The position numbers and the translations under genes are program-made. A DNA stretch of 64,000 bases from Roseobacter sp. (GTDB taxonomy: Bacteria > Pseudomonadota > Alphaproteobacteria > Rhodobacterales > Rhodobacteraceae): assembly GCA_015665415.1 (NCBI GenBank), contig JADFAE010000004.1:1-64000 (forward strand). Direction: 5' to 3'. Below the pieces are notes generated by a model that saw nothing but the letters and a program-made list of their open reading frames with translations, ran no database searches and was not told where the DNA came from. Shown one piece after another: positions 52,606 through 62,800 of the stretch. Each line of letters begins with the position of its first letter. Position 1 is the first letter of the stretch.

Positions 52606-54495
52606 CTATTCGGGGATGGTAAAGACCTGCCCCGGATAGATCAGATCGGGGTCGCGGATGGCCTTTTGGTTGGCCTCAAAAACACGCACGTACAAGAACC
52701 CACTGCCATAGCGCTGTTGTGAAATGGCCCAAAGCGTGTCGCCTTTCTGGACAGTCACGGCCCGCACCAAGGGTGCCGGGGCTGCTGGCGTGCCCTCTGC
52801 CCCCTGCGGTGGCAGCAAGACCTCGGGCGCTTCGCGTTTGAACGGGGTTTCAAGGCGGCTCAATACCTTGCCCGCTGCATCGACCTCATCCAGGCGCAGG
52901 GTGTAAACCCCGGGGTCCACCGCCGTCAGCCCGCCGCCCCAGCTGCCATTTTCGGCTGTGGCAAACTGCCCGCTGGGGGCATTGTCGAGATAGACCAGAA
53001 CCCGCATATTTCCGCCCGCGCGCCCTGCCAGTTGCACCACACCACTGTCAGAGTAGCTGATGGTGTCCAGCACCACCTTGCCCTGCGGCATCTGGGCGAC
53101 CGGCTGCACCAAGGTAACCCCTTCGGCATCGGCACGCAGCACCGCAACCTGGGTGGTTTCGGGCTGTGGGGCCGGATCCGCCGCAACCACGGCCTCTTGC
53201 TCTTGCGTCGCCGTCGAAGTGCCTTCTGGCAGGGTCGAAGCAGTCACCTCATCCACAGCGCTATTTGCCGTTGGGATAGCTACGGCGGTGACAGGAGCCG
53301 CCGCCTCTGGCGCCTCTTGCGAGACACCGGCAGGGCTATTGGCCAAAGCAACTGCTGCGGCGGTTTCTGTATCGGCCCCTTCGCCAGCGACCGCTGCCAC
53401 CGCGCTGGTCTGGCTTTGCTCTGCCGCTGGGGGCTGCGTTCCGCCTGCCGTCTGTTCGACAGCTGATCCAGATGTCGCCTCCTGCGTTGCAGCTGCGATC
53501 TCTTCAGTTGCTGCCTGTTCCGTTTCAGCCTGTTCCGTTTCAGCCTGTTCCGTTTCAGCCTGCTCTGTTTCGGCCAGCTCTGTTTCGACCGGTTCTGCAA
53601 CGGGCTGGGATGCCGGAACCGGGCTGGCCGGGGCCAGAATGAAGCTGGATTCAGACAGGGTCTGCTGACCACCGGCCTCAGCCCGCAACGAGATCACCCG
53701 CGCATATGTGCTTGGCGCAATGGAGGCAAAGGCGACAAACTCGCCGCCAGCCTGGACATCCACATGGTCCAGAACTTCGCCGTCCAGCAGGATCGCAATT
53801 TGAATGCCTTCGGCGGCACGTCCGGCAATGATGGTCTCGCCGGTGGGATCCACGCGGACCAGATCAAGCTTTGGCGCCGCAAGCAGAGTAGCCTCTGTCA
53901 GGGAGGGCTGGGTCTCGCTGTCCTGTGGCTCGCTGTTGGCGAGGGTCTCGCCCGCCACCTCAGATCCACCTTCCACACTGTCGCTGGCTTCAGATATGGA
54001 AGCCGCGGCGGTTTCAGTTTCGCTTTCGCCCGCCCCCTCGCCTTCCGCGACGGCGGTCTGCTCAACATCGGAGCCCGTTGCTGGAACAGCGGTTGGCTGC
54101 ACTGCCTGAACACCATCCGCCTGCACGCTTTCAACCTGAGAAGTTTCGGCCTGAGAGTCTTCAGCCTGTGCCGGTTCAGATGGATCTGTTTCGACCTCAA
54201 CAACCTCTGCCTGGGCATTTTCGCCCTGTTCCGCTGTGGCGACCTCGGCCTGTGGTTCCTCCGCAGATGGGTCCGGTTGCAGCGACACCCCCTCTACGAC
54301 GCTGGGGTCATTGCTTGAGGGGGAAATGGCAATCTCAGCCCCGGCTGGGTCCCTTGCCTTGGCGTTGCGATCCGTTTCGGTGTCACCAAAGACCCCCAGC
54401 CAGACCAGCGCAGCGCCGCCGATCACCACAACCGTTGCCCCGATACCCCCCAGTGCGAGCGTGCTTAGCCCGCTCGTTCCACCTGTCTCAGCCAT
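52606..54495 (-). CDS. LysM-domain protein with acidic repeat linker
   Basis: The 629-residue protein has one TM segment near the N-terminus (about 12-35), then a very long Glu/Ala/Gln-rich linker. Within it is an Ig-like segment (LDLVRVDPTGETIIAGRAAEGIQIAILLDGE), then a tandem ETEQA repeat region, a second Ig-like segment (GKVVLDTISYSDSGVVQLAGRAGGN), and a C-terminal LysM (VQKGDTLWAISQQRYGSG). LysM binds peptidoglycan, so the protein may bridge membrane and wall. The linker has few other clues. Confidence 0.85.
   Translation of the reverse strand: MAETGGTSGLSTLALGGIGATVVVIGGAALVWLGVFGDTETDRNAKARDPAGAEIAISPSSNDPSVVEGVSLQPDPSAEEPQAEVATAEQGENAQAEVVEVETDPSEPAQAEDSQAETSQVESVQADGVQAVQPTAVPATGSDVEQTAVAEGEGAGESETETAAASISEASDSVEGGSEVAGETLANSEPQDSETQPSLTEATLLAAPKLDLVRVDPTGETIIAGRAAEGIQIAILLDGEVLDHVDVQAGGEFVAFASIAPSTYARVISLRAEAGGQQTLSESSFILAPASPVPASQPVAEPVETELAETEQAETEQAETEQAETEQAATEEIAAATQEATSGSAVEQTAGGTQPPAAEQSQTSAVAAVAGEGADTETAAAVALANSPAGVSQEAPEAAAPVTAVAIPTANSAVDEVTASTLPEGTSTATQEQEAVVAADPAPQPETTQVAVLRADAEGVTLVQPVAQMPQGKVVLDTISYSDSGVVQLAGRAGGNMRVLVYLDNAPSGQFATAENGSWGGGLTAVDPGVYTLRLDEVDAAGKVLSRLETPFKREAPEVLLPPQGAEGTPAAPAPLVRAVTVQKGDTLWAISQQRYGSGFLYVRVFEANQKAIRDPDLIYPGQVFTIPE
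53516..53590 (-). repeat. 15-bp tandem repeat in the LysM gene
   Basis: Three perfect copies of the 15-bp unit TGTTCCGTTTCAGCC lie at 53516-53560, then two degenerate copies to 53590. Each encodes ETEQA on the minus strand. Its length may vary between strains. Confidence 0.85.
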
Positions 54496-54635
54496 CTTCT
54501 TCCTTCCCTTCAGCGCCGCATCAGCCCCCTTTTGAGAGCCCCCCTCGCGCCTGGTTGAGGCAGCCTATCAATCACGTTATCAAGGGTCAAAACACGAGTT
54601 GTGTTCCCCTTGAAATCAAAGTGAAAGGTTGCCCC

Positions 54636-55175
54636 ATGAGCATAAAATCCGTCTGTGTGTATTGCGGATCCCGTTTTGGAGCAATGCCTGCCTATGAATC
54701 CGCCGCCAAAAGCCTGGGCCAGTTGCTGGCTGAAAACGGCTTGCGACTGGTCTATGGCGCGGGCGATGTGGGGCTGATGGGGACCGTGGCACGCGCCGCG
54801 CAACAGGCAAGTGGCGAGACTTTTGGCGTCATCCCGGAACATCTGGTCAAACGCGAAATCGGCAAGAGCGACCTGACCTCCTATGTGGTCACCGAGACCA
54901 TGCACGAGCGCAAGAAAGTGATGCTCTACAACGCGGATGCGGTGGTTGTGCTGCCAGGCGGTGCAGGCTCATTGGATGAGCTGTTCGAGGCCCTCACCTG
55001 GCGTCAACTTGGACTGCATGACAAACCCATCGTGATCCTGAATGTGGACGGATATTGGGACAAGCTGCGCGATCTGGTGGATCACATGATCGACCAGGGA
55101 TTTGCCGATGCCTCCCTCGGCGTGCTGCTGACTTGGGTTGAAACGCCAGAGCAGGTTTTGGAGGCCTTGACCTAG
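54636..55175 (+). CDS. LOG-family (TIGR00730) protein
   Basis: The 179-residue protein has the Rossmann-like fold of the LOG family: VCVYCGSRFGAMPAYE, LVYGAGDVGLMGTVA and the signature VVVLPGGAGSLDELFEALTWRQLG with the conserved PGGxGTxxE-like motif. Relatives release cytokinin-type bases from nucleotides; the bacterial role may be nucleotide repair or salvage. The ATG at 54636 is taken; the long upstream frame is a shadow of the LysM gene. Confidence 0.9.
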   Translation: MSIKSVCVYCGSRFGAMPAYESAAKSLGQLLAENGLRLVYGAGDVGLMGTVARAAQQASGETFGVIPEHLVKREIGKSDLTSYVVTETMHERKKVMLYNADAVVVLPGGAGSLDELFEALTWRQLGLHDKPIVILNVDGYWDKLRDLVDHMIDQGFADASLGVLLTWVETPEQVLEALT

Positions 55176-55283
55176 CGGAGCAGCGGCAACAGGCAGATAG
55201 CACCAGGCGGTACCAACTGCGTTTGCGCCATTTGCCGCCTCATTCATCTGGCCAGAATTCTTCTGGCCTGACCGCAAAACCAG

Positions 55284-55310
55284 AAACGCCCGACCAAATG
55301 GCCGGGCGCT
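55284..55310 (-). terminator. Terminator of sodB
   Basis: CGCCCGACC (55287-55295) pairs with GGCCGGGCG (55300-55308) around AAAT, allowing one mismatch. It lies 31 bases after the sodB stop on the minus strand. Confidence 0.7.
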
Positions 55311-55338
55311 ACCGTTTGTCTCGTTTCGACGCGCGGGC

Positions 55339-55941
55339 TTAGCCCAGACGTGAAGCCACGTTTTCCCAATTCACCAGGTTGTCGAGGAAGTTCGACAGAT
55401 AGGCAGGGCGTTTGTTGCGGAAATCGATGTAGTAGGAGTGCTCCCAAACGTCGCAGCCCAGCAGGGCCGTCTGATCAAAGCACAAAGGGTTGACGCCGTT
55501 TTCGGTCTTGGTCACTGCCAAGGATCCGTCAGCGTTCTTGACCAACCAGGCCCAGCCAGAGCCAAACTGGCCTGCGCCCGCTGCGGAGAACTGCGATTTG
55601 AACTCGTCAACCGAACCAAAGCTTTCCACCAGCGCTTTTTCCAGATCACCCGGCATGGCAGAGCCGCCAGGGCCCATCATTTCCCAGAACTGGTTGTGGT
55701 TCCAAAGCTGGGAGATGTTGTTGAAAATGCCGTTCTGAGCCACGGAAGAGGCGTCATAGGTGCCCTTGATGATCTCTTCCAGCGACTTGCCGTCCCACTC
55801 GGTGCCAGCGATCAGCTTGTTGCCGTTGTCGACATAGGCTTTGTGATGCAGGTCGTGGTGGTATTCCAGAGTTTCTGCCGACATGCCCTTGGCGGCCAGC
55901 GCATCGTGTGCATAAGGAAGATCGGGAAGTTCAAAAGCCAT
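55339..55941 (-). CDS. sodB: Fe-type superoxide dismutase
   Basis: The 200-residue enzyme removes superoxide in the cytoplasm. It shows the metal-binding His of LEYHHDLHHKAYVDN, NHNQFWEMM, and the C-terminal signature DVWEHSYYIDFRNKRPAYL with Asp and His ligands. FGSGWAWLVKN is the usual SOD pattern. Fe versus Mn specificity is not certain from sequence, though the family of this group is Fe-type. Confidence 0.96.
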   Translation of the reverse strand: MAFELPDLPYAHDALAAKGMSAETLEYHHDLHHKAYVDNGNKLIAGTEWDGKSLEEIIKGTYDASSVAQNGIFNNISQLWNHNQFWEMMGPGGSAMPGDLEKALVESFGSVDEFKSQFSAAGAGQFGSGWAWLVKNADGSLAVTKTENGVNPLCFDQTALLGCDVWEHSYYIDFRNKRPAYLSNFLDNLVNWENVASRLG

Positions 55942-56065
55942 ATCGGACCCCTGTCAAAATAATGTTGCGTTCCTGTGCAGATACATGCGGCGCAGCGGTT
56001 GGCAGGTCAAGGGCCTAGACCATAAAACAGCGCATGTCAGATGTGCAAAATTGAGGGAAACAGGG

Positions 56066-56839
56066 ATGATCGCCAAGAGCTGGATCGCAGCGCGCAAGAT
56101 GTTCTACCGCGCACGGGGGCACTATTCTGGCTCTCTCAACGGCCTGCCTTTCCGACTTGACCCCTACCATTCCAAGTTCTGGCGCAAGGCCTCTGCCGGG
56201 AAATGGGAGCCGGAGACCTTTGCGGTTCTGGATGCGCATCTGGACGCCCAGCATGACTATCTGGACATCGGGGCCTGGATCGGCCCCACCGTGCTATATG
56301 GGGCAGCCCGGGCCCGCCGGGTCTATTGTTTTGAACCGGATCCGGTGGCCTTTCGCTATCTGGCCTGGAACCTGGAGCTGAATGCGGTGCAAAATGTCTC
56401 GGCCTTTTCCGCCGCCCTGAGCCAGGGTGTGGGCATTGCCCGGATGGCCTCTTTTGGCGGTGAGGCCGGCGACAGCATGAGCAGCCTTCTCCATGATGGC
56501 GCTCATGGCTCTGACGTAGTTACCTTGGGTTGGGAGGATTTTGCCGCGGCCGCAGACCTCAGCCGGGTGTCGCTGGTCAAGATGGATATCGAGGGCGCGG
56601 AATTCGACGTATTGCCCAGCCTGCTGCCCTGGCTGAAAGCGCAGCGACCGGCGCTGTACCTGTCGACCCACGCGCCTTTTCTGGATGCTGAAACCCGGCT
56701 GGAGCGGATGAAGACCTTGGCCGAGCAGTTGTCCTTTTATGGCAGTTGCAGCGAAGACAACGGCCGCGCCACCGGATTTGAAACCCTGACCCAGGAGCGC
56801 GCCCTGAGCCAGTTCCCGACATTTTTGTTCACGGACTAG
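56066..56839 (+). CDS. FkbM-family methyltransferase
   Basis: The 257-residue protein is an FkbM-type SAM methyltransferase with YLDIGAWIGPTVLYGAARARRVYCFEPDP (motif I and acidic residue), AFRYLAWNLELNAVQNVSAFSAAL and VSLVKMDIEGAEFDVL. Such enzymes often methylate sugars or polysaccharides. The ATG at 56066 has AGGG upstream; an upstream in-frame start at 55985 is less likely. It is not inside a clear glycan cluster here. Confidence 0.88.
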   Translation: MIAKSWIAARKMFYRARGHYSGSLNGLPFRLDPYHSKFWRKASAGKWEPETFAVLDAHLDAQHDYLDIGAWIGPTVLYGAARARRVYCFEPDPVAFRYLAWNLELNAVQNVSAFSAALSQGVGIARMASFGGEAGDSMSSLLHDGAHGSDVVTLGWEDFAAAADLSRVSLVKMDIEGAEFDVLPSLLPWLKAQRPALYLSTHAPFLDAETRLERMKTLAEQLSFYGSCSEDNGRATGFETLTQERALSQFPTFLFTD

Positions 56840-56885
56840 TCTGTTTACAAATTAGTGACAGGCCCGCAGACCGCGCGCATATCTC

Positions 56886-57299
56886 TCACTTGCATCTGAG
56901 CGTTCCCGGCCCGTCGCGAAGCCCACCAGAGGGAACAGCGACCCACATGCGGCCACTCTTGTCTTGTGGATCAAAATCGACTTTGTAGCCAATCGACATG
57001 ATATCCCATTCACTGGTGCGCAGTCCCAACCTCCACTTGAAGCGGATGACACCATCCTTTCGTGGCTTGGCCACCACCGTCAAAGGTCCCTTTGTTTCAT
57101 GGTTCCTAAAGCCGGGGTCAACCAGGACTTCCATGTTGTCTTTGTCGATTGAAAACTTGATCCGGTAGGGAGTCCAATTGCCAGTGCGCTTCGCCTCGAT
57201 ATCACAGGTATAGTCATAGCGAGGGGCTGCGTCTTTAGCAGCAAATGCGGTGGTGCCAGACAGGGCCACCAGTGCAATTGAAAATAGCTTAGTCTTCAT
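56886..57299 (-). CDS. Secreted paralogue 4 of four (unknown function)
   Basis: The 137-residue protein starts with a signal peptide (SIALVALSGTTAFAA). The mature part opens with YDYTC, has a RFKW motif in its middle, and ends with GPGTLRC, so two cysteines likely form one disulfide. The form is beta-rich with no TM segment. It is related in pattern to the three genes upstream (57400, 57864 and 58473), and all are on the minus strand. No known family is recognised. Confidence 0.7.
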   Translation of the reverse strand: MKTKLFSIALVALSGTTAFAAKDAAPRYDYTCDIEAKRTGNWTPYRIKFSIDKDNMEVLVDPGFRNHETKGPLTVVAKPRKDGVIRFKWRLGLRTSEWDIMSIGYKVDFDPQDKSGRMWVAVPSGGLRDGPGTLRCK

Positions 57300-57399
57300 T
57301 CTTTGTAGTTTCCCTTCTGAATTGAGTATGAGAAATCGGGTATCCAGACGTTGCCTTGGTTAGCGTGCGGACAATGCAACGACATCCCACTGTCAATTC

Positions 57400-57810
57400 T
57401 CAATCTTCTAACATCGAACAACTTCCCGACCCACGAATAGGTCTGTCGCCACCGTGAATAGTGACGGAAATCGTCGAGGTCATCTTGTTCGCATCCAACC
57501 TGCTGGAGAAAGACCCTCTTAAGGTGCTGTTAGAGCTGCGGACAGGAATGTCATTCAAGCTCCACTTCATCAGATAGCGACCAGGCTTCAACACTTTCAA
57601 ACTTGTCGCGATCGGCGATTTACTGGTGTTTCTGATATAGGGATCAAAGGCCATGGCAGTGCCGAGTGCCTCATCAATCACATAGACAGCCTTTTCATGC
57701 AGGCCAGTATTTCCGGTATTGTCCACATAGGTGCATAGATAGGCCTTTGGCGCGGCCGTTGCAGCTGCTGCAGAGAGTATGAGAAGGCCTGTGGCCAAAA
57801 GAGTTTTCAT
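57400..57810 (-). CDS. Secreted paralogue 3 of four (unknown function)
   Basis: The 136-residue product has a signal peptide (MKTLLATGLLILSAAAATAA), then KAYLC, a LMKW motif, and a C-terminal GSGSC followed by four residues. The ATG at 57810 is chosen because AGGA lies six bases upstream; an ATG at 57825 would add five residues. It shares the Y-x-C start, the Lys-Trp centre and the G-x-G-x-C end with its neighbours. Function unknown. Confidence 0.7.
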   Translation of the reverse strand: MKTLLATGLLILSAAAATAAPKAYLCTYVDNTGNTGLHEKAVYVIDEALGTAMAFDPYIRNTSKSPIATSLKVLKPGRYLMKWSLNDIPVRSSNSTLRGSFSSRLDANKMTSTISVTIHGGDRPIRGSGSCSMLED

Positions 57811-57863
57811 AATTTTCCTAAACATTCATGGAACAAGTCATCGACGGCTTTTCACCGCCAACT

Positions 57864-58358
57864 TTAGCTTTTGGGGTTTTGACGAATGTAAGATTCGATC
57901 CCCTTCCCCAAAGTCCGGCACTCCCCCTCTTCCGGGGACCACCAGTTTCCACCACCGTGCGTTCTTTGCCGATAGGAAAACTGCAAGGTGTTGGTATCGA
58001 ACTCGACCTTAAAAGACACCCGGACCTTGACTTCGGTTCGTGACACCGGATCTCCGTCACTGGTACGCGTAAGAGCCCCCGGCAGCCCCTTTACCGTCCA
58101 TCGCAGACCCAGCTTGCCATCGTTCAGGACCGTGAGTTTTGCGGCCATCGGCGCGGCACTGGCGTATCCGACTTCTCGATTGAAAACTCTGGCGGACTGC
58201 GATTTGGACGCAATCTCCAGCAGAAATTCATTGTTCTGGAGGTTCTTTCTGGCCGCAGGTCCAAATACACAATGATAGGTCTGACTTTCTGCTTTTACAA
58301 ATCCAGGCGACAACAGCACCACAGCGCCCAGAGACAGCGCACGAAAATTCAGTTTCAA
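57864..58358 (-). CDS. Secreted paralogue 2 of four (unknown function, TTG start)
   Basis: The 164-residue product is the longest of the four. It starts with TTG at 58358, with AGAGG seven bases upstream; no ATG or GTG precedes it in frame. The signal peptide (LSLGAVVLLSPGFVKAES) is followed by TYHC, LTVLNDGKLGLRW and a C-terminal SPEEGECRTLG with an extra 15-residue tail. Function unknown; likely periplasmic or secreted. Confidence 0.7.
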   Translation of the reverse strand: MKLNFRALSLGAVVLLSPGFVKAESQTYHCVFGPAARKNLQNNEFLLEIASKSQSARVFNREVGYASAAPMAAKLTVLNDGKLGLRWTVKGLPGALTRTSDGDPVSRTEVKVRVSFKVEFDTNTLQFSYRQRTHGGGNWWSPEEGECRTLGKGIESYIRQNPKS

Positions 58359-58472
58359 TCTTAAACCTCTAGTTCAAATAGAAAAACCCAAAACCAAAAC
58401 CAACAATCCTCTTGGTACGACACATCAACACTCTAAAAACAAAGCATGAATGCAGTTACAGCCAAGGTTGCA

Positions 58473-58892
58473 TCAATTCAGCACATTCTCAACCAAGACG
58501 CAAGTCCCGGCCCCACGGGAGGAATGCGGCACAGAGGCTATTTCCGAAAGGACCTGTAGCGACACCTTCATGTTCTCAACATTCAGGATCACCCGATAAC
58601 GGTCACCAATCAGGCCGGTGGCCTTTGCCGCGAAAGACCGGCTGGCGGTCCAATCCAAGAGGTAAGAGCTGTCGCTGCGTCTTTCCATATTTGCTGCAAC
58701 CGGCGTGCCTGCTTCCGAAGCCCAAACCTGTGCCGATTTTCGATTGTCGGAAAGTTGCATCGCGACCTGTGGCGGAATCCAGTCGGATTTGTTCAACGCC
58801 ACAAAGGAGCAAAAATAGGTCTCAGAGGATTCTGCCACGGTTGCGAAGAAAACGACCGAAGAAACGGCTAATTTGTGCAGAAATCCTGTCAT
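58473..58892 (-). CDS. Secreted paralogue 1 of four (unknown function)
   Basis: The 139-residue product has a signal peptide (LAVSSVVFFATVAES), then ETYFC, the centre YLLDW and a C-terminal GAGTCVLVENVLN. ATG at 58892 is preferred, with GAGGGTG upstream; the longer frame from 58976 lacks a signal peptide at its start. It is the first gene of the minus-strand array of four. No known family recognised. Confidence 0.7.
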   Translation of the reverse strand: MTGFLHKLAVSSVVFFATVAESSETYFCSFVALNKSDWIPPQVAMQLSDNRKSAQVWASEAGTPVAANMERRSDSSYLLDWTASRSFAAKATGLIGDRYRVILNVENMKVSLQVLSEIASVPHSSRGAGTCVLVENVLN

Positions 58893-59247
58893 ATCACCCT
58901 CAGGTAGGCCCATTGTGCCTAGGCCTGTTGCGTGGCTACCAGTGCTGTAATCAGCCAATCTCGAGATGAGCGGCATATCACATTGAGCTACTATAGGTTG
59001 AATAACATGACGCCACTTCGCGTCAAAGAAAAATCAGCAATATGATAAAAAGATTTATTTCCCTTAGGGCCATTCGCCCCAAACCTGTGTCAATCCAGCC
59101 TTCAAGCTCCGGGCCTAAAACCCTGTTTTCCCGGCGAAATATCAATAGAAATCAAATCACGCTGCCACGTCAAGATTTCGCAAATGTAAAAAACCCCAAT
59201 TACCCCTTCCTCTCCAAAAAAAAATGTCAAAAGTAACGGCAAAACAT
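58893..59247. other. AT-rich intergenic region upstream of the paralogue array
   Basis: About 350 bases upstream of the secreted-protein array and downstream of soxG hold no supported gene. The stretch is clearly AT-richer than the sox genes. It probably carries the promoter of the array; no exact motif can be named. Confidence 0.5.
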
Positions 59248-59283
59248 CAAAAAAGGGTGCCTCCAAAATAACTGGAGGCACCC
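59248..59283 (-). terminator. Terminator of the sox operon
   Basis: GGGTGCCTCCA (59255-59265) pairs with TGGAGGCACCC (59273-59283) around a 7-nt loop. On the minus strand the stem is followed by a T-run, 38 bases after the soxG stop. Confidence 0.9.
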
Positions 59284-59321
59284 TAGATTTTCAGGCGCAA
59301 CAAGACAACCTTGAATACATA

Positions 59322-59894
59322 TCAACCTTGATAGACACCCACTGCCGATTGCGGATGCGCGGCATTGGACAACAGGTTGAACATATAGGCCCCAACAGAG
59401 CGGAAGCAGACCAAGCGCAAGCTGCCATCAGCCTCGAGCCAGAAAGCGGCAGCCACCTGGGCGGTGCGGCTGCGGCGAAAGTCGCCGGGCGCAAAGGCCT
59501 CAGGGGACAGGTCCACCGGGCTGATCTTGGCCAGGGTCTCGCGCGCGCCCTCCCCAGAGATGGTGAAAAACGACCGCGCATCAGAGACATTGGCCGTCAG
59601 GGCATGTTCGCCTTTCAGCGCCTCGGCCAGCTCGGCTGTGGTGGCAACTGCGGCCTCGTAAGGCACCAGCAGCAGCAGCTCATCCGGGGACATCCAGGCG
59701 GCAGCTCCGCTCTCGGAGGTCTCGATCTTGCGCTGTGCGGGCACCTTGGCGCCGGTGGCAGCCTTGACCGCTGCCGCCAGAACCTTGGAGGAGAGATCGC
59801 CGCGCAGGGTGATCATCCCCTGCAACCCGGCATCTGCGACAGTCGCCATGCCCGCGAACTGGGCACCATTGGTTGCGGTGACAGGATTAGACAT
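59322..59894 (-). CDS. soxG: Sarcosine oxidase gamma subunit
   Basis: The 190-residue protein fits SoxG: an N-terminal MITLRGDLSSKVLAAAVKAATG, central AAWMSPDELLLLVPYE and a C-terminal HPQSAVGVYQG-like end. It is a helper subunit of the heterotetrameric enzyme that demethylates sarcosine to glycine. It starts eight bases before the soxA stop (overlap) and is the last gene of the operon. Confidence 0.93.
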   Translation of the reverse strand: MSNPVTATNGAQFAGMATVADAGLQGMITLRGDLSSKVLAAAVKAATGAKVPAQRKIETSESGAAAWMSPDELLLLVPYEAAVATTAELAEALKGEHALTANVSDARSFFTISGEGARETLAKISPVDLSPEAFAPGDFRRSRTAQVAAAFWLEADGSLRLVCFRSVGAYMFNLLSNAAHPQSAVGVYQG

Positions 59895-62800
59895 TCTGCT
59901 TCTCCCCTTCCTTGTCGTAAAAGACCGGGTCAACGATCTTGGCTTTGTAGATCTTGCCGTCGGTTCCGGGGAACTCGATCACCTCACCCATGCGCTTGGG
60001 TCCGTGCTTGACCAGACCCATGGCGATGCCGCGACCCAAGGTCGCCGAATGATAGGTCGAGGTCACCCGGCCAATCACATTCTGCTGGCCATTGGCATTG
60101 ACGCCTTCGCCCTTGGCATAGGCACCATCGGGCAGCACAGAGCCGTCGACGGTCTCCAGACCCACCAGTTTCCAGCGGTCCGGGTCGGCCATGTGAGAGC
60201 GCAGATGCGCGCGTTTGCCCAGATAGTCCTCTTTCTTTTTGGACAAGGCCCACTGCAGGTTGAGATCCTGCGGGATCACGGTGCCGTCTGTTTCATCACC
60301 AATCATGATAAAGCCTTTTTCGGCCCGCAGGATGTGCAGGGTTTCCGTGCCATAGGGCATGACATTGAATTCTTTGCCCGCCTCCATCAGCGCATCCCAG
60401 AAGGCCTGCCCCTCAGAGGCCGCAACCGCGATCTCGTAGGACAGCTCCCCGGAGAAGGAAATCCGGTAGGCGCGTGCGTTGAAGCCACCGATCTGGCCAT
60501 CCCGCCACTCCATGAAGGGCAGCGCCTCTTTGGACAGATCCATGCCGCCGCCAGCCTGGTTGTTGAGCTTTTCCAGCACCTTGCGGGCCTTGGGACCAAC
60601 AACAGCCACTTGCGCGTATTGCTCTGTCACATTGGCAACATAGACTTTCCAGTCCCACCATTCGGTCTGCAGCCATTCTTCCATGTGACCATGGATGCTT
60701 TCGGCCCCGCCTGTGGTGGTGTGACACAGCCAAGTGTCCTCGTCGATGCGGGCGACAACGCCATCATCAGACAGGAAACCATTTTCCGAACACATCAAAC
60801 CATAGCGGCATTTGCCGATCTTCAGCGTCGACATCATGTTGGTGTACATCATGTCGAGGAACTTGCCCGCGTCCGGCCCTTTGACGATCAGCTTGCCCAG
60901 GGTCGACGCATCAAGAAGCCCGAGGTTCTCGCGGGTGTTCTTGACCTCGCGGTTCACGGCGTCATGACGACTTTCACCGCTGCGGCAATAGGCAAACGGA
61001 CGACGCCACTGGCCAACCGGTTCCCAGTCCGCGCCATTGGCATCGTTCCAGTCATAGATCGGTGTCTTGCGCACAGGCTGGAAGATCTCGCCGCGCGCCT
61101 CGCCGCCAATCGCGCCCATCGAGATGGGGTGATAGGGCGGACGGAAGGTGGTGGTGCCAACCTGTGGAATTTCAGCACCCAGGCTGTCGGCCAGAATGGC
61201 CAAGCCGTTGATGTTGGACAGTTTACCCTGATCGGTGGCCATGCCCAACGTGGTATAGCGCTTGGTGTGTTCAACGCTTTCATAGCCTTCACGGGCTGCC
61301 AGCTGCACGTCAGAGACCTTGACGTCGTTCTGATAGTCGAGCCAGGTTTTCATCCGCAGCTTGATATCCGCCTTGGCGGGCATCAGCCAGACCGGCTGCA
61401 TCAGAGCCTCATCCTCGGCTACGCCTTTGGAGGCAGCCACGGATTTGGCCGGGAAACCCGCAGCCTCAGCCGCCTGCGAGCCTGCAGCGGCCGCATCTTC
61501 CAACACAGCGCCTAGGCCCAGATTGCCATTGGCGGAGCCCGCCGCGACCACAAAGCCTGCGCCGTTGTCGCCAAGTGGAGGACGATTGGGATCGGGGCGG
61601 AAAAAGGCCTGCTCCTTGTCCCAGGTCAGCTTGCCGCCGCAATGGGACCACAGGTGCACAACAGGTGACCAGCCGCCAGACATGGCAACCGCGTCAGCCT
61701 CGACTTCTTCCTGGGCACCGCCTTCGCCATTCTGCGCGCAGATGGCGACCTTGGTGACACGAGGGCCATCCTTGACGCGGGCAATGGCGCGGCCCAGCTC
61801 AACGCGGATACCTTTTTCGCGCACGGCCTCCATCAACTCGCCGCCGCCAGTGTCACGGGCATCCACCACGCGCACCACTTCGACGCCTGCCTCATGCAAG
61901 GTCAGCGCGGTGCGATAGGCATCGTCGTTATTGGTAGCAACCACGACCTTTTGACCCGGGTTCACGCCCCAGTTCACCACATAATCGCGCATCGAAGCCG
62001 CCAGCATCACGCCGGGCACATCGTTGCCAGCAAATGACAGCGGACGCTCAATAGCACCGGTGGCGGTGATGATCTGGCTTGCACGCACACGCCACAGCCG
62101 GTGGCGCGGGCCACCCTGTCCGGGCGCATGATCCGTCAGACGCTCGTAACCCAGCACATAGCCGTGATCATAAACACCAGAGCCCATGCAACGGTCGCGC
62201 AGGGTGACATTTGCCATGCCGCGCAGCTCTTGCAGGATCTTTTCAATCCAGGCATCCGGCGTGTCACCATCAATGGTGCCCCCATCTACAGGGGCACGAC
62301 CGCCCCAATGGCTGTTCTGCTCCATCACCAGCACCTTGGCACCGCTCGCCGCCGCCGCCTTGGCCGCCTGCAGACCGGCAACACCGCCGCCCACGACAAC
62401 CACATCGGCAAAGAAGTAGAAGTGCTCGTAGCTGTCGGCGTCTTTCAGTTCTTTGTCGGGCGCTTCGCCCAGACCGGCAGATTTGCGGATGATCGGCTCG
62501 TAGACATGTTTCCACAGCGGACGCGGGTGGATGAACATCTTGTAATAGAACCCAGCGGTCAAAAAGCGCGACAGCTTGTTGTTGATCGACAGGACGTCGA
62601 ATTCCAGGCTTGGCCAGTGGTTTTGCGAGGCCGCCGTCAGGCCCGAGAACAACTCGGTGGTGGTGGCGCGCTGGTTGGGCTCATAGCGGTCGCCTTTGCC
62701 CAGTTGCATCAGGGCATTGGGCTCTTCCGAGCCAGAGGCCACGACACCACGCGGGCGGTGGTATTTGAACGACCGGCCCATCATCATCTGGTCATTGGCC

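What the first reader, a model, noticed from the sequence alone, without database searches (positions are those of the whole stretch)
56886..58892. Four tandem secreted paralogues of an unnamed disulfide family
Four neighbouring minus-strand genes encode proteins of 136-164 residues, each with a signal peptide, Y-x-C (or near form) at the mature start, a Trp-centred motif (RFKW, LMKW, LRW, LLDW) in the middle and a Gly-rich Cys near the C-terminus. They have diverged strongly from each other, as in old duplications or fast change. One uses TTG as start. The region is AT-richer than its neighbours. No known domain is seen, so this may be a new secreted system.
Basis: partly seen in the sequence, partly recalled or inferred. 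Interest (0 to 1): 0.7.

Follow-up and report, generated by a model that had tools for sequence, protein, structure and literature searches.

The report
Changeable array of exported barrel proteins
Some marine bacteria carry, between two ordinary metabolic genes, a tandem set of fast-changing exported proteins of a family that the libraries searched here do not name; they seem to share one small barrel shape, and their number and kind differ even between close relatives, which suggests that they bind something variable outside the cell.

Summary
Four minus-strand genes (56886-58892) encode exported, two-cysteine paralogues with no Pfam or NCBIfam match. Their family was found in 96 of 394 genomes of the window's own taxonomic family and 11 of 12 of its genus; class (337) and phylum (299) samples gave only same-family hits. 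The array has a fixed address: in 87 of 108 family loci every member lies between soxG and sodB. Models of two window proteins are confident eight-stranded barrels with the invariant cysteines in first and last strands. Fold matches (lipocalin, avidin, MoaF, fHbp) are weak, and profile comparison finds no homology to MliC or MoaF_like. Genes are under purifying selection (dN/dS 0.08-0.30), mostly faster than neighbours. Content turns over: two relatives with 95% and 92% identical flanks share no DNA match in the slot, and one gene looks like a crossover of two tandem copies. Best reading: exported binding proteins in a locus of changing content; target unknown. No positive selection was seen, so an arms race is unproven.

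The parts
58473..58892 (-). Gene D, 139 aa exported two-Cys protein; first after soxG
   Evidence: modelled as eight-stranded barrel, pLDDT 90.0; its clade has a row from each of the 11 carrying genomes of the genus
57864..58358 (-). Gene C, 164 aa, TTG start
   Evidence: orthologues in G249 and G250 at about 45%
57400..57810 (-). Gene B, 136 aa
   Evidence: modelled as eight-stranded barrel, pLDDT 94.9
56886..57299 (-). Gene A, 137 aa
   Evidence: family profile E 7e-25; orthologues in G251 and G255
59254..59284 (-). Terminator-like hairpin after soxG (13 pairs, then T run)
   Evidence: 6 terminator-like sites found in the stretch, 4.3 expected; this is the longest stem
59322..59888 (-). soxG, sarcosine oxidase gamma subunit; upstream border of the slot
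   Evidence: Pfam PF04268; border in 87 of 108 loci
55339..55941 (-). sodB, Fe/Mn superoxide dismutase; downstream border of the slot
   Evidence: Pfam PF02777 and PF00081; border in 87 of 108 loci
55985..56839 (+). FkbM-type methyltransferase, convergent, between array and sodB; present in a minority of slots
   Evidence: Pfam PF05050; a relative of over 50% identity in 20 of 87 loci

Best explanation
The four genes are one state of a tandem array of changing content that sits between soxG and sodB. Each gene makes a protein exported by a signal peptide (inferred from sequence), folded as a small eight-stranded up-and-down beta barrel (predicted) and closed by a disulfide between first and last strands (inferred from two invariant cysteines). 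Four longer loops at one end form a rim whose length differs between members; I infer that the proteins bind an extracytoplasmic target there, most likely a protein that attacks the envelope, in the manner of MliC or Neisseria ACP, which bind lysozyme. The repertoire changes by loss and frameshift of copies, by crossing over between tandem copies, and by exchange of slot content through recombination in the conserved flanks (or by differing losses from a larger old array). Shown here: family, slot, turnover, purifying selection. Predicted: fold. Inferred only: export, disulfide, binding, target.
For: Family and invariants: 192 of 192 and 183 of 183 Cys where a letter stands, 177 of 197 signal-like by a crude rule, 175 of 178 full members with exactly two Cys in the mature part. 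Slot: 87 of 108 loci, 24 of 25 named loci. Fold: pLDDT 94.9 and 90.0. Rim: loop-length s.d. 1.41-2.91 for the four loops of one end, 0.25-0.89 for the three of the other. Turnover. Precedent for the inhibitor mode: abstract of PMC5507604.
Against: No positive selection: dN/dS 0.08-0.30; substitutions do not single out the long-loop rim (0.20, against 0.19 for the other rim and 0.15 in strands). No profile homology to MliC, and no MliC chain among the 50 rows shown in either PDB fold search. Lineage E is not clearly faster than the neighbours. 9 of 108 loci have neither neighbour. No target was tested.
Confidence: 0.4

Rival explanations
1. Exported small-ligand carriers: each barrel holds a different small molecule in its cup, as lipocalins or avidins do, and the array widens the range of compounds bound.
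For: Foldseek rows are dominated by lipocalins, and rhizavidin gives TM 0.63/0.62 with D; conserved W17, D37, Y/F102, N104 lie at one rim in canonical members.
Against: No Foldseek match at E <= 0.001 in PDB, and lipocalin TM scores are mostly 0.3-0.4. No Pfam lipocalin match in 40 members at E <= 1. Whether the barrel has a cavity was not examined.
Confidence: 0.22
2. Near-neutral birth and death: a periplasmic protein of minor, general use under weak constraint, duplicated and lost in a tolerant interval, with no adaptive diversification.
For: dN/dS below 1 throughout; broken copies in L280 and L281; absent from 298 of 394 genomes of the family.
Against: Two Cys, Trp and Gly kept over very deep divergence; one fixed slot kept in 87 of 108 loci; dN/dS well below 1 shows that copies matter.
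Confidence: 0.2
3. Immunity proteins: each member protects against one periplasm-acting effector or bacteriocin of kin, and the array stores past immunities.
For: Small exported two-Cys proteins in tandem, strong divergence, content that differs between close relatives.
Against: No cognate toxin or secretion gene recognised at the slot (only soxA, soxG, fkbM and sodB were searched for by bait, the rest read by eye). One of 40 members matches a PADLOC profile, at E 0.075. No plasmid match for B or C and no viral-contig match for B. No positive selection.
Confidence: 0.1

Closest known systems
MliC/PliC lysozyme inhibitors (Pfam PF09864) and Neisseria adhesin complex protein ACP (PMC5507604, abstract read)
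   Same: Small exported protein, Y-x-C near the mature start and a Cys near the end; ACP is an eight-stranded barrel with a disulfide between first and last strands.
   Different: hhalign probability 0.8 to an alignment of MliC rows; no MliC match in 40 members by Pfam at E <= 1; mature part about 115 residues against a 67-position Pfam model; no MliC chain in the fold rows shown.
Lipocalins and avidins (rhizavidin 3ew2)
   Same: Up-and-down beta barrel of eight strands with longer loops at one end.
   Different: No Foldseek match at E <= 0.001; rhizavidin TM 0.63/0.62, lipocalins mostly 0.3-0.4; no Pfam match.
MoaF_like domain (PF22036) and MoaF (4q51); PDB 5hal
   Same: Barrel of similar size; 5hal is the best PDB row for B by TM (0.59/0.66), MoaF 4q51 has TM 0.51 with D.
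   Different: hhalign probability 2.2 to five MoaF_like rows. What family 5hal belongs to was not established (searches found no paper on it).
Neisseria fHbp and NHBA barrel domains
   Same: Exported barrels; among the best Foldseek rows (6cuj, 5o1r, 4ayn).
   Different: TM 0.42-0.58 normalised by the query; those are lipoproteins (recalled, no call), while none of 197 members here has a lipobox at the first Cys.

Membership tests
MliC/PliC (PF09864) | Sequence profile | tested here: not met
   No PF09864 row in hmmscan of 40 members at E <= 1; hhalign probability 0.8 (30 rows, one of them empty)
MliC/PliC (PF09864) | Barrel with first and last strands joined by a disulfide | tested here: inconclusive
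   Predicted layout and Cys places fit, but no MliC chain appears in the 50 Foldseek rows shown; bond not shown
MliC/PliC (PF09864) | Inhibits c-type lysozyme | not testable with these tools
   needs an assay
Lipocalin | Sequence profile | tested here: not met
   No lipocalin row in Pfam scans of the four proteins at E <= 10 or of 40 members at E <= 1
Lipocalin | Eight-stranded up-and-down barrel | tested here: inconclusive
   Eight strands predicted; Foldseek rows weak
MoaF_like (PF22036) | Sequence profile | tested here: not met
   No row in Pfam scan; hhalign probability 2.2 against five rows
Known anti-phage defence protein | PADLOC profile | tested here: not met
   One of 40 members at E 0.075, nothing better
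The soxG-sodB exported barrel family described here | Two Cys about 104 residues apart, mid Trp, export signal, profile match, soxG-sodB slot | tested here: met
   All four window genes

The most novel reading that the evidence does not exclude
The soxG-sodB interval of roseobacter-type bacteria is a natural, exchangeable repertoire of exported binding barrels: cassettes of one scaffold with different rims, swapped between relatives through the conserved flanks, that neutralise variable envelope attackers (lysozymes, rival effectors or phage proteins).
Probability: 0.2. Interest if true: 0.75.

Novelty: new variant of a known kind. Interest (0 to 1): 0.55.

Why it matters
A family without a name in Pfam or NCBIfam, found in 96 of 394 sampled genomes of its bacterial family, sits mostly at one address yet differs in content between close relatives. 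If the barrels are binders, the locus is a ready-made set of natural variants on one small scaffold, and the fixed slot makes it easy to survey in related genomes. It is also a test case for how a tandem array changes while its flanks stay the same.

Tried and rejected
Known-domain identity: Pfam, NCBIfam, PHROGs, PADLOC and PDB sequence searches gave only isolated weak rows, each Pfam and PHROGs family in one of 40 members. The lowest E values (Pfam Endotoxin_C 7e-4, PHROG 36637 1.2e-3) and the PDB profile rows (contactin, xylanase, E 0.12 and above) are taken as chance.

MliC and MoaF_like homology: not supported by hhalign. A first run is void, because several rows were read on the wrong strand. 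The positive controls (two halves of one alignment, 99.9 and 99.8) are easy ones and do not measure reach.

Lipoprotein: 0 of 197 with a lipobox at the first Cys. Plasmid or phage origin: no tblastn match of B and C in the plasmid collection, none of B in viral contigs (A and D not tried). Positive selection: not found. RNA element at 54500-60500: none at gathering score. A common neighbour for the nine loci outside the slot: none seen by eye.

Literature: seven searches seen as listings, one abstract read; none named this family. Only open-licence papers are held.

Full report
Observation. The four minus-strand genes exist as described, in the order soxG-D-C-B-A: D 58473-58892, C 57864-58358 (TTG start), B 57400-57810, A 56886-57299. 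Aligned, they share L5, Y30, C32, P72, W89, P131 and C136 (numbering of A). BLASTP E is 1e-8 for B/C, 3e-6 for C/D and 5e-4 for B/D; A alone is marginal (0.003-0.03). C lacks the Gly-rich end. The slot is the most A+T-rich stretch of its length in the window. A 13-pair terminator-like hairpin follows soxG, so the array is probably its own transcript; that is inference.

One family. Searching 248 genomes of the same taxonomic family with B alone found 23 with matches. A profile of 46 members that I chose from the 56 unique ones found the family in 96 of 394 genomes there, with 1-5 copies, and in 11 of 12 genomes of the genus, with 1-4 copies. Class and phylum samples (337 and 299 genomes, overlapping) gave 4 and 8 genomes with matches, all of the same family. 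In some searches at most 10-13 first-look candidates per genome were scored, so these counts are lower bounds. An iterated profile converged on 207 ORFs in the loci held, 197 of them unique; reversed ORFs gave nothing below E 0.3. Among the unique members the first Cys column is Cys in all 192 with a letter there and the last in all 183; Trp stands in 183 of 194 and Gly before the last Cys in 176 of 184; 177 of 197 pass a crude signal-peptide rule and none has a lipobox. No library names it. That the family is Rhodobacteraceae (Roseobacteraceae or Paracoccaceae in NCBI's lineage) rests on the named records nearest to the window's sodB and soxA, not on a label of the genome.

One slot. I took 107 stretches around family matches (98 for the places, 9 for the other carrying genus members) and added the window. 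Of these 108 loci, 87 have soxG and sodB in reach with every member between them, 7 have sodB only, 5 soxG only and 9 neither; at least four one-flank cases (L209, L215, L233, L250) are cut by contig ends. All 145 members in loci with soxG are on its strand. In 80 named loci fetched with SodB as bait (the best 80 of 595, so they cannot show copies elsewhere), 25 hold members: 24 between soxG and sodB, one (L142) beside sodB with no soxG found; 5 of the 41 members are inverted. In the 39 named loci with soxG within 6 kb and no member, soxG and sodB lie under 150 bp apart in 18, and other genes fill some of the longer gaps. The nine loci with neither neighbour show no common theme by eye. Presence is clustered on a soxA tree of 61 rows (60 of 80 named loci plus the window; 20 left out for lack of a long soxA, soxG or sodB): 11 changes against about 19 when shuffled, 0 of 500 as low. 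This fits long residence with repeated loss or gain.

Evolution. In the genus six lineages can be told apart (my letters F-E-D-C-B-A, in array order); the window holds D, C, B and A. The D clade has a row from each of the 11 carrying genomes; the others are patchy; two rows of G252 fall in none, and long branches make deeper joins unsure. One copy in L280 is broken by a frameshift and one in L281 lacks its C-terminal Cys. Over 12 genome pairs dN/dS of family genes is 0.08-0.30 where dS is defined, against 0.01-0.05 for sodB, 0.04-0.07 soxA, 0.08-0.22 soxG and 0.06-0.17 fkbM, so the ranges overlap. Family dN exceeds that of soxG, soxA and sodB in most comparisons, but lineage E does not in G253/G249 (0.073 against 0.075 for soxG and 0.108 for fkbM), and C in G249/G250 is below fkbM. 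D proteins of the window and five congeners are 40-55% identical where SodB is 97-99%. This is purifying selection on a mostly fast protein, not positive selection. Pooled by structure, dN/dS is 0.15 in strands, 0.20 in the long-loop rim and 0.19 in the other rim (dS near saturation), so substitutions do not single out one rim.

Turnover. L097 and L100 (both recorded as Ruegeria arenilitoris) are 95.1% identical over 3461 bp on the soxA-soxG side and 91.7% over 1647 bp on the fkbM-sodB side, with no DNA match between at E 1e-5; one of the two L097 proteins still has a 46% identical counterpart in L100, the other none. Exchange of slot content, or differing losses from a larger shared array, would explain this; slow divergence would not. 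In L102 the first array gene matches one L106 copy at 93-97% in its first part and 43-70% after, and the next L106 copy at 39-67% first and 90-100% later, the pattern of an unequal crossover. A caution: all three L102 members lack the last Cys, so that array is degraded or poorly assembled. Among 104 distinct loci, where soxG proteins are at least 90% identical 34% of 44 member comparisons have no counterpart of 40% identity over 70 residues; at 80-90% it is 63% of 303, at 70-80% 91% of 217, at 60-70% 95% of 1030. Divergence and gene replacement both feed these figures, and pairs are not independent.

Structure. With the four window proteins and 36 (B) or 33 (D) proteins of the named loci as alignment, out of 41, B is modelled at pLDDT 94.9 and D at 90.0: eight strands in each, the first Cys in strand 1 and the last in strand 8. 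The two alignments overlap, so agreement is partly built in. Foldseek found no PDB match at E <= 0.001; the rows include lipocalins, Neisseria fHbp and NHBA barrels, MoaF, rhizavidin (TM 0.63/0.62) and 5hal (TM 0.59/0.66). Among viral models one match reaches E 3.6e-4 (a Serratia phage PS2 protein of no known function, TM 0.55). The four loops of one rim vary more in length (s.d. 1.41-2.91) than the three of the other (0.25-0.89). Canonical members share W17, I18, P19, D37, P47, G101, Y/F102 and N104; nine of the 28 pairs of these features are associated at p < 0.01, with relatedness not controlled. Single-copy loci score 5.9 of 8 on average (72 members), multi-copy 5.3 (70), the best of each array 6.4 and the worst 4.4 (best-of-several is biased upward). 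The window's four score 3-4 and it lacks the canonical E lineage.

Function. Neisseria ACP, an eight-stranded barrel with a disulfide between first and last strands that inhibits lysozyme without MliC motifs (PMC5507604, abstract), shows that such a barrel can be an inhibitor. This family has no profile homology to MliC or MoaF_like, so it is not filed there. The window's genome has no MliC match at E <= 0.001, which neither helps nor harms. I commit to exported binding proteins, most likely inhibitors of something that attacks the envelope, at 0.4 for the full statement; small-ligand carriers, near-neutral birth and death, and immunity proteins are the rivals. Sarcosine oxidase and superoxide dismutase may be no more than a safe address.

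Noticed in passing
L108 (JAHVJD010000002.1): Record titled Nocardioides marinus, but its sodB and soxA are 92% and 90% identical to the window's and its soxA groups with Leisingera: a mislabelled or contaminated genome.
   Followed up: partly
window 52606-54495 (-): 629-aa protein with a C-terminal LysM domain and a run of ETEQA repeats in the middle.
   Followed up: no
L280:5120-5577: A family copy split into two frames: a decaying member of lineage F.
   Followed up: partly
L281:3097-3567: C-lineage copy whose end differs from its G249 orthologue and lacks the last Cys.
   Followed up: no
L118:7943 and L143:6709 onward (+): The soxG-sodB gap holds an agmatinase-like gene (recognised by eye, no search) and no family member: the slot takes other genes too.
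   Followed up: no
G078: loci L184, L215, L250: One genome with members on three contigs, one beside sodB, one beside soxG and one (L184) near neither.
   Followed up: no
L097:7241-7636, L106:6231-6626, L106:6724-7119: A sub-family with a longer mature part and an FEC...NRPTP motif in Ruegeria loci.
   Followed up: partly
L102:6678-8041: All three family members lack the last Cys: degraded array or assembly errors.
   Followed up: no
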